Origin: Segetibacter sp.
Lineage (GTDB): Bacteria; Bacteroidota; Bacteroidia; Chitinophagales; Chitinophagaceae
NCBI GenBank assembly: GCA_028288485.1
Contig: JAQBNO010000062.1
Span: 1 to 52,488, forward strand
Direction: 5' to 3'
DNA length: 52,488 bases
In this document: in pieces, positions 33,125 through 38,596 of the stretch
How positions within the stretch are numbered: the first letter of the stretch is position 1
How the letters are laid out: the number at the start of each line of letters is the position of its first letter
Translations under genes and position numbers: made by a program
The notes under the pieces: model-generated
The model's input: the letters and a program-made list of their open reading frames with translations, nothing else
Told to the model about the DNA's origin: nothing
Databases searched by the model: none

Positions 33125-34220
33125 ATGACACAAGAACAAATTAAGGAAATGAGGGACCGCGTAATTGTCCTAAGGAGGTTTCTTTGACGTCGATAACCGA
33201 CAGGCTAAAATAGATAATGATAAGCAACTTTCTCTTTCGCCCGGCTTTTGGGATGATAATGCAAGGGCTACCGGCATTCTTAAGGAAATAAAACTGAGTG
33301 AATTCTGGACAAAGCTTTACCATGCTGTTGAAACGGCGGTGGAAGATTTTGCAGTGCTTTTCGAATACTGGAAAGCAGGGGAGGCGAGCGAAGAGGAGGC
33401 TAAAGAAGCTTATACAACTGCTATAGCAGCCATAGAAGAAGCAGAGTTTAAAAGCACATTGAATCAGCCCGAAGATGAACTGACGGCAGTAATGCAAATT
33501 AACCCCGGTGCCGGTGGTACAGAAAGCCAGGATTGGGCGGAAATGCTGATGCGGATGTACCGCATGTATGGACAGAAGCAAGGCTGGAACGTAACCGAGC
33601 TCGACCTGCAGGAAGGTGATGGTGCCGGCATCAAGAGTGCCACCCTGCAATTTGAAGGAGCTTTTGCGTACGGGTTTTTGAAGGCTGAAAGCGGTGTTCA
33701 CCGGCTGGTACGTATTTCTCCGTTCGATAGTAATGCCCGACGACATACTTCTTTTGCCAGCGTATATGTTTACCCGTTAATTGATGACACCATTGAAATT
33801 GAAGTTAATCCTGCTGATGTGGAATGGGCTTTCTTCAGAAGTGGCGGCGCAGGTGGACAAAACGTAAACAAGGTGGAAACAGCCGTGAGGTTAACGCACA
33901 AACCTTCGGGAATTATAGTAGAATGCCAGCAGGCCCGTACTCAGGGTGAGAACCGTGAAAAGGCAATGAAGATGCTGAAGAGCCGCCTTCACGAAGAAGA
34001 AATGCGCAAACGCGAAGCCATTAAAAATGCCAATAACGCCAGCAAGAAAAAGATTGAGTGGGGCAGCCAGATCCGCAGTTACGTTTTCCACCCGTACAAG
34101 ATGATTAAGGACCACCGTACCGATTACGAGGTTGGCAACGTAGGACCGGTAATGGACGGAGAACTCGACGGCTTTATTAAAGCTTACCTAATGATGCAAA
34201 AGGAAGTGGAAGCAAGCTAA
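33125..34220 (+). CDS. prfB: peptide chain release factor 2, expressed by programmed +1 frameshift
   Basis: Recognises UGA and UAA. Translation starts at ATG 33125 ([13 protein letters not shown]), reaches CTT TGA at codons 20-21, and resumes in the +1 frame at GAC (33186), giving about 364 residues, the normal RF2 length. The recognition tripeptide lies in [15 protein letters not shown] (SPF), and the peptidyl-tRNA hydrolysis GGQ is in [17 protein letters not shown]. Starting at the in-frame ATG 33339 would lose the N-terminal helical domain. Expression is autoregulated through the in-frame UGA. A terminator follows. Confidence 0.97.
33173..33188 (+). promoter_or_regulatory. RF2 programmed frameshift site
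   Basis: AGGAGGTTTCTTTGAC: an internal Shine-Dalgarno (AGGAGG), 3-nt spacer, slippery CTT, in-frame TGA, then C. Same arrangement as the E. coli AGGGGGTATCTTTGAC site. Confidence 0.97.
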
Positions 34221-34310
34221 ACCCGATCCCCTAAATCACCCTAAAGGGCGGCTTAAAGCACCCGAAGCTTTGTAGAGTGTTTTAAATGTAACAGGCTATT
34301 AATATTTTTA

Positions 34311-34340
34311 AAGGTCGAGCGCAGCTCGACCTTCTTTTGT
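34311..34340 (+). terminator. terminator of prfB
   Basis: AAGGTCGAGC-GCA-GCTCGACCTT perfect 10-bp stem followed by CTTTTGTTT. Confidence 0.75.
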
Positions 34341-34418
34341 TTCAACCCGATTTGGTATTAGCCTTGTTATACCTGCCAAAAAATCGTTTGGGTATTGCGA
34401 GTTCCCCTTTACGGGCAT

Positions 34419-35585
34419 TTAGAGGGTTTTTTTATTCCTCTCAACCAAATACTCCAGCAACAACGTCTTGTTATAGGCCGGGCAGAAATAATGGTAATTC
34501 AGCATGTTGAAGTGAAGGAAAGGTCGCTTGAATGGATTGGGGAAAAGGATAGCTGCGCGTGCCTGGTAAAACACAAATTCATCCTGGTTGCTTTCTTTAA
34601 AATCAGTGAGGCTTTCAATAGGTAATGGAGGAGCCTGACCGGCCAGCCGCAATAGCGAAGTACTCAAGATAATGTCGGTCATTATATTGGTTGATTTCTT
34701 CAATTCGTTTTTTATATCAGCAATTAATTGCGGCTTGTAGAGTTCTAATTCCGGAATTGTAAATCTTCCCATTAACCGCGCAATATGGTATAGCAGTATT
34801 GGGGTGTGAACGTAATAGGGGGAGATGTAAACAGGGTCGCTCACATATTTCCTGTCTTTGATCATGTCTTGCAATAAAAAAATCGTAGCCGAGTCGATTT
34901 TATTAAGCGGCAATTGTTTCTCCTTTAAAAAGTAAACAATATTGCAGTGAACAGCAAAGTCAAAGTCGGAGAGCATGTTCTTTCCAAAGTAGGTAGTATG
35001 CGCCGGTAAGTATTTGTACTTTTTATAAGTCGTCTTTGTAAAGCGCCGCTTTCCGTTGCTGGCTGCATCCATTAATTGTTTTACCATTTTTATCGTAGTA
35101 TCTTTTTGATCACTGGTCATCATGATCATTACAGTATCATCGAGATCTTCTGAAACAGCAATTTTTTTCCCCGAACGGGCAATCCAATAACTGTGTGGCA
35201 TGACCGGGTAGCCCTTGTGCCAGAAATAATAAATAGGAAGACTATCCGGGTTTATAAAATGCGGGTATGTTTTAGCGGCCTTTGCTATTATACTTTTGCA
35301 GGTGTCCTGGTTGCTGACGCTTAAGTAAGGCAGCATATTTTTCAGTGCAAAAGAAAGTATGGTAGTAAAAAAAACGTTTTCATCAGGTGTTATTCTTTGA
35401 GGGTAGCCTGCAAACTTCCGGTAGCTATAAAACATTCCGTCAATAAAGTCTCCCTGTTTTGTCATCTGCTCCCGGGCAATTTCTTTTACCAATTGGTTAA
35501 TCAGGGTTGAGTCAGGAACATTAGCCTTAACAACATGGGTTAAAAGAAAAAAGAAAAGCAACAACTGGCAAATTTTCCGAATCAT
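34419..35585 (-). CDS. secreted protein with class II terpene-cyclase-like motifs
   Basis: 388 residues. Residues 1-21 are a clear Sec signal peptide (MIRKICQLLLFFFLLTHVVK, cleavage near KA-NV). Two motifs of the class II terpenoid cyclase alpha/alpha-barrel appear. EDLDDTVM places D147-x-D149-D150-T-x-M153, the catalytic DxDDTxM. The second is DFDFAVHCNIVYFL (207-220), like the D..V.aN..YFL block of diterpene cyclases. Length fits a single beta-type domain pair without QW repeats. It starts 25 bp after the class I isoprenoid-synthase gene, so the two form an operon. Function is inferred; an alpha/alpha-barrel hydrolase or binding role is the alternative, and export is unusual for a prenyl-diphosphate enzyme. 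Confidence 0.6.
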   Translation of the reverse strand: MIRKICQLLLFFFLLTHVVKANVPDSTLINQLVKEIAREQMTKQGDFIDGMFYSYRKFAGYPQRITPDENVFFTTILSFALKNMLPYLSVSNQDTCKSIIAKAAKTYPHFINPDSLPIYYFWHKGYPVMPHSYWIARSGKKIAVSEDLDDTVMIMMTSDQKDTTIKMVKQLMDAASNGKRRFTKTTYKKYKYLPAHTTYFGKNMLSDFDFAVHCNIVYFLKEKQLPLNKIDSATIFLLQDMIKDRKYVSDPVYISPYYVHTPILLYHIARLMGRFTIPELELYKPQLIADIKNELKKSTNIMTDIILSTSLLRLAGQAPPLPIESLTDFKESNQDEFVFYQARAAILFPNPFKRPFLHFNMLNYHYFCPAYNKTLLLEYLVERNKKTL

Positions 35586-35610
35586 ATAGTTTAAATAGCT
35601 TTTATTGAGT

Positions 35611-36603
35611 TTAAGTTAGATGCGGAACTTTATAGGCATAATACAGCCAGCGGAGTGTGTTCGATGGTAGTTCCATATCGCAAATCAATTGTTTGCGGGT
35701 TAGTTTTTCGAAGGGCAACGGTTTGCCATATTGTTTCTCAAGGCGCATCAACTGGTCGAAAGCAACGTAACCCCTGCTGATAACCTGGCTCATGGCAATA
35801 CTGAATTCCATTTTCTTCTTTTGCTTGAAAGGAAGCGTATAAATTAAACGATTGCACTCTCTTACCCTTGCTTCAAACAGGGCTCTTAATTTTTTAAAAT
35901 CGGTACACCTATCAGGGAGTGTAATAATGCCATCGCGACGATCTTTGTGAATATCAAAAAGATCATTACAAAACTGCATCAGGCTGCCAACATAAAATAA
36001 GACTTTCCACATAGCCTCGCTTGCCGGCCGGTCCATTATCTGGTGATAAATAATTACAGAATAACCACCTTTTGCATAGGTAATCCGTTCAAGTTCTTCA
36101 TCGGTTATCGATGCGTCGGTTTGCTTAATCGTCTCTAGTTGAATTTCAAAAACATTTTTTGCGGCTTCAAGGTATTCGTCTTTAAAGGGCACGTCGCTGA
36201 GCATGAATGACTGGATATCCTTAGCAACTTTTGCTGAAAAATTTTTCGCGTCATACCGTTCAGGATGATACGTGATTTCTTTGATAGCGTCAGCTTCAAG
36301 TTTATCAATATCAAAAAGGTCATCGCCAACCGGCGTTAGTATGCCGAATAGCGTCGCTCTTTTTCTTTCAGCTTCAGTAAAAGATTGTTTATATAATTGC
36401 TTGTAGCTCGAACAAAGAATGGTTGGAATAAATAAGCCGTAATACTTTCTTATTTTTTTCAATTGCTCGTCCTGGAAACTGCCGTCATGATTTTTTTGCA
36501 GGTCGTTCAGGTACGGATTGAGAAATGTATTAATGTAAGCCTGTTGTTTTTTCAATTCTTTCTGCAGCCTGTATAACGTGCTAACGTACGTGAAAAGAGC
36601 CAT
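35611..36603 (-). CDS. class I isoprenoid synthase-like (terpene synthase fold)
   Basis: 330 residues, all-helical, no signal peptide. Two metal-binding motifs are present at the expected spacing: D94-D95-L-F-D98 (DDxxD) and N213-D-L-F-D217-I-H-K-D221, an NSE-like N-D-x-x-(S/D)-x-x-x-(E/D). This arrangement is that of class I terpene synthases or trans-prenyl transferases. The lack of a second DDxxD and the general divergence make an ordinary farnesyl/geranylgeranyl diphosphate synthase unlikely. It is upstream of, and probably co-transcribed with, the DxDD protein. Product unknown. Confidence 0.75.
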   Translation of the reverse strand: MALFTYVSTLYRLQKELKKQQAYINTFLNPYLNDLQKNHDGSFQDEQLKKIRKYYGLFIPTILCSSYKQLYKQSFTEAERKRATLFGILTPVGDDLFDIDKLEADAIKEITYHPERYDAKNFSAKVAKDIQSFMLSDVPFKDEYLEAAKNVFEIQLETIKQTDASITDEELERITYAKGGYSVIIYHQIMDRPASEAMWKVLFYVGSLMQFCNDLFDIHKDRRDGIITLPDRCTDFKKLRALFEARVRECNRLIYTLPFKQKKKMEFSIAMSQVISRGYVAFDQLMRLEKQYGKPLPFEKLTRKQLICDMELPSNTLRWLYYAYKVPHLT

Positions 36604-36780
36604 TCTTCTAAAGTCGTTTTAGCGGTAAAGATATTAGAATATTCATCAGCAGCTATTAATACAACAGCCTTTTTAACAGGAGAAGAAAAGAGGGAATTGA
36701 AAATTAAATGAAAAGATGAAGGTAGCCTGGAAGCAGGAGTAGCTTAGTAATAATCTGCACATGCGAAAGGATGGCCGATG

Positions 36781-37044
36781 CTATTTAAGTAAAGCAATGA
36801 TTAAGCTAACTTGAAGTAACAAAAACGTGAGAATGAGAATACTTAACAGGTTTTGAACTCGTTTAAGCCGGGCTCTTTCTACAGTTGAAGTGAGTTTAAT
36901 ATTTAGGTGATCAAAGAACAGGAATTGTCCGAATGTCCAGGTTTTGTTTTTGTGTTTTATAAATATAAAAATTTTAATTATCAGTAACGCGGCAGAAATC
37001 AAATAACCATATTTTAATAAAAAGATAATTAGCGAATCGATCAT
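36781..37044 (-). CDS. small two-helix membrane protein
   Basis: 87 residues with hydrophobic segments at about 5-29 and 66-86 and a basic loop between (KHKNKTW, ERARLKRVQ). No family recognised. It lies 177 bp upstream of the terpene-synthase-like gene on the same strand, so co-transcription is possible but not evident. Confidence 0.55.
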   Translation of the reverse strand: MIDSLIIFLLKYGYLISAALLIIKIFIFIKHKNKTWTFGQFLFFDHLNIKLTSTVERARLKRVQNLLSILILTFLLLQVSLIIALLK

Positions 37045-37278
37045 AAGTTGTTGGTAATGATGAACTAAAATGCGAGTTAAATGTATAAAAAAGTTTAGTG
37101 CTAAACGAATTTGGTAGTTTATGAAGGAAAAAGGGAATATATACCGAACGGTACTTTAGCAAATGGCGCACATAGAAAATTAAATGATTAAATCGTGTGT
37201 TATGACGACTTTTTTTAGAGATTTGGTTAAAAATTAGATACAACTGCCAGAAAACAGGGTAATAATAACGTAAAAGAA

Positions 37279-37285
37279 AGGAGGT
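37279..37285 (+). promoter_or_regulatory. strong ribosome-binding site deciding the start at 37292
   Basis: AGGAGGT lies 6 nt before ATG 37292. Such strong sites are rare in this window and favour this ATG over the internal one at 37388. Confidence 0.65.
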
Positions 37286-37291
37286 ACAGGC

Positions 37292-38596
37292 ATGATTATA
37301 GCAATCAGTAAACCGATGTATTTGAATAACCAGACACTAATTTGCAATACAAACAGTAACACGCATCTTCTTTCTAATAAAAAGAGAATGCTGCCCGTAA
37401 TTGCCGTTTTACTTTTTCTATTACACTCTCTTCAGGCCAGGTCGCAACAGATTAATAACGTGGCCAACGACATCGATACTACCGATAAAAAGGACCTTAT
37501 TGATGTATACCAGAAATTCTTTAAAGTAAAACCTACGAAGATGGCGAAGCGTGGTAAAAAGAAAGTTTACTTTTCCCTGCTGCCAACTTCTTCTTCAGTT
37601 CCGGGTGGTGGCAGAGCACTAATAACCTCTACCAGGGCAGGTTTTTACCTTGGCGAACGACGGAATACATTTTTATCGAGTGTTTCTTTTTCTCCATACT
37701 TAAATTTCAAGGGCCGGTATTCAATTGCATTCCGTTCAGATATTTACACCAGTAAAAACAGGTATAATATACAGGGTGATACACGTTTTTCGAGGTATCC
37801 GGAATATGTATACGGCACCAGCACCAACCGAAGGGGTGAAAGACTGCTTATAACCTATAATTATATTCGACTGTACCAAACTGTTTTAAAGCGGTTAAAG
37901 CCTTATTTTCTTGCAGGTATTGGTTACAATCTCGATTACCATATGGGCATTAATTCTGTGAACGATACAATTGGTTTTGCAAAATTTACCGGTTATGAAC
38001 ACGGGACAGGTGTTGATCAGAATACGGTATCGTCCGGCATAACCTTTAACCTGCTGTACGATTCGCGAAACAATTCTATCAATCCTTTACCGGGCGGTTA
38101 TGTGAATCTCATATATAGGCTAAACCCTTCTTTTTTAGGCAACCGGCGCAGTTCATGGAAATCTATTTATCTCGACACAAGAAAGTACATCGACTTAAAA
38201 GGTCGGAAACGACATGTTCTTGCATTATGGAACTACATCTGGACCGCCCTTGATAATGACGTGCCATATTTAGATTTGCCCGGAATTGGGTATGAGCCTT
38301 ACCAAAGGTCGGGAAGAGGAATTGAGATGAACCGGTACAGGGGTAAAAGCCTGGTTTATTTCGAAGGCGAATATAGAAGCGATATCACCGCTAATGGATT
38401 ACTTGGTTTTGTTGTATTTGCAAATGTAAACACCGTTACGGGTCCTGCTAACGGACGTTTTAGTGCTCCTCATCCCGCAGCAGGCGCCGGGTTACGCATC
38501 AAATTCAATAAACGTGCAAATACAAATATTGCTGTTGATTTTGGCGTAAGTAAAGGGCGTTCTGCTGTTACACTCAATCTTGGAGAAGTTTTCTAA
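37292..38596 (+). CDS. BamA/TamA-type outer-membrane beta-barrel protein
   Basis: 434 residues. A hydrophobic signal segment (about 34-48, LPVIAVLLFLLHSLQARSQ) lies after an unusually long N-terminal leader. The rest is a 16-strand-type 'surface antigen' barrel without POTRA repeats, with the Omp85 hallmark NNSINPLPGGYVNL (D-x-R-N-N-x-x-x-P-x-x-G) and RGYR-like EMNRYRGKSL. The strong RBS supports the ATG at 37292; initiation at 37388 would give a more usual signal peptide. It may insert or translocate outer-membrane substrates; partner unknown. Confidence 0.8.
   Translation: MIIAISKPMYLNNQTLICNTNSNTHLLSNKKRMLPVIAVLLFLLHSLQARSQQINNVANDIDTTDKKDLIDVYQKFFKVKPTKMAKRGKKKVYFSLLPTSSSVPGGGRALITSTRAGFYLGERRNTFLSSVSFSPYLNFKGRYSIAFRSDIYTSKNRYNIQGDTRFSRYPEYVYGTSTNRRGERLLITYNYIRLYQTVLKRLKPYFLAGIGYNLDYHMGINSVNDTIGFAKFTGYEHGTGVDQNTVSSGITFNLLYDSRNNSINPLPGGYVNLIYRLNPSFLGNRRSSWKSIYLDTRKYIDLKGRKRHVLALWNYIWTALDNDVPYLDLPGIGYEPYQRSGRGIEMNRYRGKSLVYFEGEYRSDITANGLLGFVVFANVNTVTGPANGRFSAPHPAAGAGLRIKFNKRANTNIAVDFGVSKGRSAVTLNLGEVF

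What the first reader, a model, noticed from the sequence alone, without database searches (positions are those of the whole stretch)
34419..36603. Adjacent class I and class II terpene-synthase-like genes, the class II-like one secreted
The upstream gene has DDLFD (94-98) plus an NSE-like N213...D217...D221. The downstream gene, 25 bp away, has DxDDTxM (147-153) and a DFDFAVHCNIVYFL block like diterpene cyclases. This two-enzyme logic matches bacterial class II/class I diterpene pairs, but the class II-like protein has a clear signal peptide. A periplasmic cyclase-like protein next to a cytoplasmic isoprenoid synthase is not an arrangement I know.
Basis: partly seen in the sequence, partly recalled or inferred. 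Interest (0 to 1): 0.78.

Follow-up and report, generated by a model that had tools for sequence, protein, structure and literature searches.

The report
Exported terpene cyclase paired with isoprenoid synthase
A soil-type bacterium carries two neighbouring genes, one for an enzyme of the family that builds terpenes inside the cell and one for a terpene-ring-closing enzyme that appears to be shipped out of the cytoplasm, which would be an unusual place for terpene chemistry.

The parts
35611..36603 (-). Gene A: class I isoprenoid-synthase-fold protein, 330 aa, no signal peptide seen
   Evidence: ORF; AlphaFold2 pLDDT 94.5, pTM 0.91; structure matches
36310..36324 (-). A motif 1, DDLFD (residues 94-98), at the C-terminal end of predicted helix 77-98
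   Evidence: D94 57/58, D98 55/58
35941..35967 (-). A motif 2, NDLFDIHKD (residues 213-221), NSE-like with Asp where Ser and Glu are usual
   Evidence: N213 53/58, D217 58/58, D221 58/58; Chitinophagaceae terpene synthases read NDLFSLAKE and the like
35586..35610 (-). 25-bp gap between A and B, consistent with one operon
   Evidence: gap -40 to +158 bp in 25 linked loci
34419..35585 (-). [quoted passage not shown]
35523..35585 (-). B signal peptide, residues 1-21 (MIRKICQLLLFFFLLTHVVKA)
   Evidence: mean hydropathy 2.71 over 10 residues; outside the AsDMS-aligned range 22-384
35127..35147 (-). B acid motif DLDDTVM (residues 147-153); D149 predicted general acid, D147 predicted base
   Evidence: D147 74/74, D149 74/74, D150 70/74; roles from AsDMS and AstC
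34941..34985 (-). B residues 201-215 (GKNMLSDFDFAVHCN) with N215, aligned with the acid-activating Asn N324 of AstC
   Evidence: alignment; N215 72/74
34812..34814 (-). B Y258, aligned with AsDMS Y427 and AstC Y361 (partner of the general acid)
   Evidence: alignments; 74/74

Best explanation
A and B are two steps of an envelope terpenoid pathway whose second step lies outside the cytoplasm. A, in the cytoplasm, uses its two acidic motifs to bind Mg2+ and ionise a prenyl diphosphate made by the cell's polyprenyl synthases, releasing a neutral, membrane-soluble polyprene or prenylated lipid (inferred). B is made with a Sec-type signal, folds in the periplasm as a lone class II TCbeta domain (fold, motifs and signal shown by prediction), and protonates a terminal isoprene of that lipid with D149, activated by N215 and Y258, with D147 as the base, giving a cyclised terpenoid in the envelope (chemistry inferred from AsDMS and AstC). 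The order is therefore class I first and class II second, as in squalene synthase followed by squalene-hopene cyclase, and not copalyl diphosphate synthase followed by a class I synthase.
Against: No product, activity or localisation was measured. 22 of 47 B loci have no A in the DNA held (some are cut by contig ends); 5 of 39 B family genomes have no detected A, and the two f10 genomes with B have none, so B can occur without A. 18 family genomes have A without B. Outside the family the A relative in genome G152 has lost motif 1 and N213 (D217 and D221 stay) while its B keeps DxDD. Position 203 of B is Lys or Arg in 55 of 64 family proteins (Asn in the window) and position 343 is Arg in 31 of 64, so another phosphate site is not excluded. 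A has no clear subfamily, so what it makes is a guess. The signal-peptide criterion is home-made and not specific.
Confidence: 0.5

Rival explanations
1. B is an active exported class II cyclase but its substrate is unrelated to A, for example a prenylated quinone or another envelope isoprenoid, as MstE cyclises a prenylated dihydroxybenzoate. A and B are neighbours through inheritance of an old locus.
Against: Linked pairs keep short same-strand gaps in 25 loci, and A occurs in 34 of 39 B genomes. A adjoins B also in lineages outside the main linked clade (L018 same strand; L027 and L028 tail to tail, so not one operon there).
Confidence: 0.27
2. B keeps the cyclase fold but is not a cyclase: a periplasmic lipid-binding protein, or an enzyme acting on sugars with the same alpha/alpha barrel.
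Confidence: 0.15
3. The pair works like copalyl diphosphate synthase and a class I synthase: B acts first on a prenyl diphosphate, in the cytoplasm before export or because the signal is not used, and A ionises the cyclised diphosphate.
For: Gene order and motifs resemble bacterial diterpene pairs; Sat1646, from a set of pimarane-type class I synthases, heads A's structure list. Relatives of B outside the family lack the signal. Lys or Arg at position 203 in 55 of 64 family proteins.
Against: A cleavable-type signal in 63 of 63 full-length family-clade proteins. No gamma domain. The phosphate-anchor column is basic in only 2 of 64 family proteins.
Confidence: 0.08

Closest known systems
HAD-TCbeta drimane cyclases: AsDMS (Aquimarina spongiae, PDB 9MHS, 9M7D) and AstC (PDB 22TZ)
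   Different: No HAD domain; signal peptide instead; DxDD in 70 of 74 where AsDMS has DxDTT (PMC9128629); phosphate-anchor Arg/Lys column mostly Pro, Thr or Val.
MstE merosterolic acid synthase (PDB 6SBB)
   Different: About 10% identity; recalled as not exported; different substrate class.
Squalene-hopene cyclase following squalene synthase
   Different: Classical SHC is beta-gamma and cytosol-side monotopic (recalled); B is a soluble-looking exported beta domain; no SQHop_cyclase_C match in the own genome.
Bacterial copalyl-diphosphate synthase plus class I synthase pairs
   Same: A class I and a class II gene side by side.
Polyprenyl diphosphate synthases and class I terpene synthases (for A)
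   Same: All-alpha isoprenoid-synthase fold and two Mg-type acidic motifs.
   Different: No Pfam match above cut-off for the window protein; profile comparison weak to all three tested families, E 0.006 to 0.22, probability about 6% or less.

Membership tests
Class II terpene cyclase, TCbeta (gene B) | Alpha/alpha barrel of the terpenoid-cyclase beta domain | tested here: met
Class II terpene cyclase, TCbeta (gene B) | DxDD or DxDT acid motif | tested here: met
   D147 and D149 74/74, D150 70/74
Class II terpene cyclase, TCbeta (gene B) | Tyr and Asn that activate the general acid | tested here: met
   Y258 74/74, N215 72/74, aligned to AsDMS Y427 and AstC N324/Y361
Class II terpene cyclase, TCbeta (gene B) | Protonation-initiated cyclisation of a polyene | not testable with these tools
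   needs enzyme assay
HAD-TCbeta (AsDMS/AstC) | N-terminal HAD-like domain fused to TCbeta | tested here: not met
   B is 388 aa; residues 22-384 align with the TCbeta domain
HAD-TCbeta (AsDMS/AstC) | Basic residue anchoring the alpha phosphate (AsDMS R378, AstC K314) | tested here: inconclusive
   That column is basic in 2 of 64 family and 3 of 10 outside proteins (1 of 10 by ungapped offset), but position 203 is K/R in 55 of 64 family proteins
Bacterial CPS-type class II diterpene cyclase | Beta-gamma two-domain architecture | tested here: not met
   No residues left for a gamma domain
Bacterial CPS-type class II diterpene cyclase | Cytoplasmic, acts on GGPP before the class I partner | tested here: inconclusive
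   Signal peptide by simple criteria; location and substrate not measured
Class I isoprenoid synthase superfamily (gene A) | All-alpha isoprenoid-synthase fold | tested here: met
Class I isoprenoid synthase superfamily (gene A) | Two Mg-binding acidic motifs | tested here: met
   D94 57/58, D98 55/58, N213 53/58, D217 58/58, D221 58/58
Class I terpene synthase proper (gene A) | NSE triad (N,D)Dxx(S,T)xxx(E,D) | tested here: inconclusive
   NDLFDIHKD: N213 and D221 fit, Asp stands where Ser/Thr is expected
Class I terpene synthase proper (gene A) | Sequence membership in Pfam terpene synthase or polyprenyl synthase models | tested here: not met
   Window A has no such Pfam match; of 20 members of A5 3 hit PF00348 (best 4.7e-5) and 1 hits PF03936 at 0.059

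The most novel reading that the evidence does not exclude
Chitinophagaceae cyclise terpenoids outside the cytoplasm: a lone TCbeta class II cyclase became Sec-exported once in the ancestor of the family's lineage and finishes, in the periplasm or outer membrane, a terpenoid lipid that a cytoplasmic class I enzyme of a new subfamily starts. It would be the first exported terpene cyclase that I know of, and its signal-less relatives would be the kind of standalone TCbeta enzyme proposed as an ancestor of HAD-TCbeta cyclases.
Probability: 0.42. Interest if true: 0.85.

Novelty: new variant of a known kind. Interest (0 to 1): 0.68.

Why it matters
Terpene cyclisation is, as I know it, cytoplasmic chemistry on diphosphates or inner-leaflet lipids. 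A conserved, exported class II cyclase with an intact catalytic set would place terpenoid maturation in the envelope of a bacterial family in which a squalene-hopene cyclase model scores above its cut-off in only 9 of 147 genomes. It also supplies candidates for the standalone TCbeta enzyme that PMC12365925 proposes as one parent of drimenol synthase. No Pfam model fits it (window proteins; 0 of 10 signal-less relatives), and no NCBIfam model fits the two window proteins, so family-based mining would miss it.

Tried and rejected
Pfam, NCBIfam and PDB sequence searches with the two window proteins alone gave nothing usable. The weak LolA2_flexi hit of A (E 0.03) and the DUF1016_N hit (E 0.15) were treated as noise.

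I tested whether A is a squalene/phytoene-type synthase: its second motif has the N-x3-D-x3-D spacing of Chitinophagaceae SQS_PSY proteins (NFLRDIHHD) and Foldseek ranks CrtM first (E 1.1e-3). But profile comparison is weakest to SQS_PSY (E 0.15 and 0.22) against polyprenyl synthases (0.014 and 0.006) and terpene synthases (0.045 and 0.014), all with hhalign probability of about 6% or less, and I see no SQS_PSY enzyme among the 50 rows. So A stays unassigned.

I looked for other conserved partners around 47 B loci and 20 A regions: only A and B recur as a pair. The other repeats look like housekeeping genes (pruA-like, prfB-like, tpiA-like, acyl-CoA dehydrogenase-like; names by eye from sequence, no search) that I read as synteny. 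Promoter scan of 34150-37300 found fewer sites than shuffles (6 against 8.3); the 5 terminator-like sites (2.4 in shuffles) are all on the plus strand and are not used.

The signal-peptide criterion is home-made (hydropathy, a Lys/Arg before it, a small-x-small site). It also passes 123 of 345 other ORFs of at least 200 aa in the same loci, 1 of 26 A proteins, and 43 of 49 B proteins when only the first 35 residues of the longest ORF are read. It therefore shows a clean split between B groups, not a calibrated probability.

Rows dropped: from the B set, duplicates with equal residues 60-300 and ORFs of 300 aa or less; L088 is cut at its contig end and not counted for the signal. Two outside B proteins (G222, G519) and one family protein (G531) were not in the 74; looked at later, the first two show no signal, the third does, and all three keep DxD. 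Many records are titled only Bacteroidetes bacterium, and L092 is titled Beijerinckiaceae bacterium; they fall in the family clade and are counted with it.

Literature: no paper describing an exported terpene cyclase was found in searches (0 papers each; 15 papers hold both words; listing seen only, neither term in any title or abstract; 2 papers, listing only). Searches (0 papers; 124 papers, 20 listed; 10 papers, 8 listed; 1,500 papers, 12 listed) had other aims; besides the three papers opened I saw listings only. Only open-licence PMC papers were searched, so this does not show absence from print.

Full report
WHAT IS THERE. The window lies in a Chitinophagaceae genome, most likely Segetibacter: the same-genus genome G098 has a contig of 834,941 bases with the homologous locus at the same place as NZ_BJYT01000001.1, Segetibacter aerophilus. 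Two genes run on the minus strand: A, 35611-36603 (330 aa), then B, 34419-35585 (388 aa), with a 25-bp gap. Neither protein matches a Pfam or NCBIfam model above its cut-off.

CATALYTIC RESIDUES OF B. In AsDMS, D333 protonates, and D331 and Y427 are essential (PMC12365925: abstract, part 1 of 3 of section 5 and two passages seen). In AstC, D273 is the acid, activated by N324 and Y361, with D271 the proposed base; N324A, Y361F, D271A and D271N abolish product (PMC13244436: passages and sections 12 and 14 seen). The HMMER alignments put AsDMS Y427 and AstC N324/Y361 on B Y258 and N215 (residue numbers by my count along the printed rows). The correspondence of D149/D147 to D333/D331 rests on the shared DxD motif and fold, since the printed alignments do not reach it. 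Among 74 B sequences, the window's included, D147, D149 and Y258 are 74/74, N215 72/74, D150 70/74. This looks like a working acid catalyst. The column of AsDMS R378 and AstC K314, which anchor the phosphate, is basic in only 2 of 64 family proteins, but position 203 is Lys or Arg in 55 of 64 (Asn in the window) and position 343 is Arg in 31 of 64, so the loss of diphosphate binding is suggested, not shown.

EXPORT. The first 21 residues of B look like a Sec signal. By a simple criterion, all 63 full-length B sequences of the family clade have one and none of 10 from outside does; three more looked at later fit the same split, 1 family with and 2 outside without (by inspection). On the tree the trait changes once; the branch to the signal-bearing rows has SH-aLRT 91 (quick tree, not starred). 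This criterion is not SignalP and its control rates are given under Tried and rejected. The outside relatives come from three genome groups of the same phylum (f10, f12, f28) and start about where the fold starts.

LINKAGE. B is in 39 of 147 family genomes, A in 52 of 147, both in 34, A alone in 18, B alone in 5, neither in 90 (Fisher p 4e-15; by genus 23 of 26 B genera have A, p 1.4e-10; neither corrected for kinship). In 47 loci of genome contigs A is directly upstream on the same strand in 25, with gaps from -40 to +158 bp. Most linked B proteins form one clade (31 rows, 28 linked, support 100). L018 (same strand) and L027, L028 (tail to tail) are linked outside it. In the phylum, A is in 10 of 296 genomes and B in 15 of 296. 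Group f12 has both in all 4 genomes with A, on different contigs; the two f10 genomes with B there show no A. The wider B search found it in 18 of 395 genomes at E <= 0.01, one of them at only 0.006.

OWN GENOME. Two polyprenyl synthases, one SQS_PSY protein, no SQHop_cyclase_C and no Terpene_syn_C_2 match. Precursors are therefore available, and no standard hopanoid cyclase or class I terpene synthase was seen by these models.

HOW IT MOST LIKELY WORKS. Shown by computation: A is class I-like, B is class II-like with an intact catalytic set, B carries an export signal, and the two are linked in part of their range and co-occur. Inferred: A ionises a prenyl diphosphate in the cytoplasm; its product, neutral or lipid-like, moves through the membrane; B cyclises it by protonation in the periplasm. 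This chemistry needs no ATP and no diphosphate, so it can run outside. The usual bacterial diterpene order would need a diphosphate to cross the membrane twice.

WHAT IS KNOWN. PMC12365925 proposes that AsDMS arose by fusion of a HAD phosphatase with a standalone TCbeta enzyme; PMC9128629 (abstract, start of the introduction and one section seen) offers the same possibility and mentions merosterolic acid synthase as a single beta domain. B's signal-less relatives are candidates for such a standalone enzyme. Exported members were not found in the papers searched. I file B as a new variant of class II TCbeta cyclases, not as a member of HAD-TCbeta, which needs the HAD domain.

VERDICT. Real, conserved and unusual. 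The fold and family claims are strong (about 0.93 for B as TCbeta, 0.95 for the export signal, 0.8 for catalytic competence, all my estimates); the pathway order and product are open (about 0.5).

Noticed in passing
L262:1132-2712 (genome G330, contig C63): A second kind of exported-looking DxDD protein (526 aa, NDADDTAS and DVDAVVNANVLTYLAQ), found by the B profile at E 4e-4; no Pfam family above cut-off, no PDB sequence match. Possibly another exported terpene-cyclase-like lineage.
   Followed up: partly
L080:5825-7882: Two A genes in tandem directly before B in Chitinophagaceae bacterium DXS.
   Followed up: no
L093:3143-5559 (same contig as L025) and L107:6581-8997: Tandem duplicated B genes with no A in the DNA held.
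   Followed up: no
L154:8330-9322: The A relative in genome G152 has lost motif 1 (VFEGFFR) and has Glu for N213, keeping D217 and D221, although the same genome keeps a B with DxDD: a possible pseudoenzyme.
   Followed up: partly
L156, L158 (group f12), L169, L170 (group f28): B relatives with DxDC in place of DxDD (4 of 74 sequences).
   Followed up: no
L165:8733-9995 and L166:6200-7441: Longer A-like proteins (413-420 aa) in other groups of the phylum with a DDxxDxxxD second motif, perhaps a wider uncharacterised class I family.
   Followed up: no
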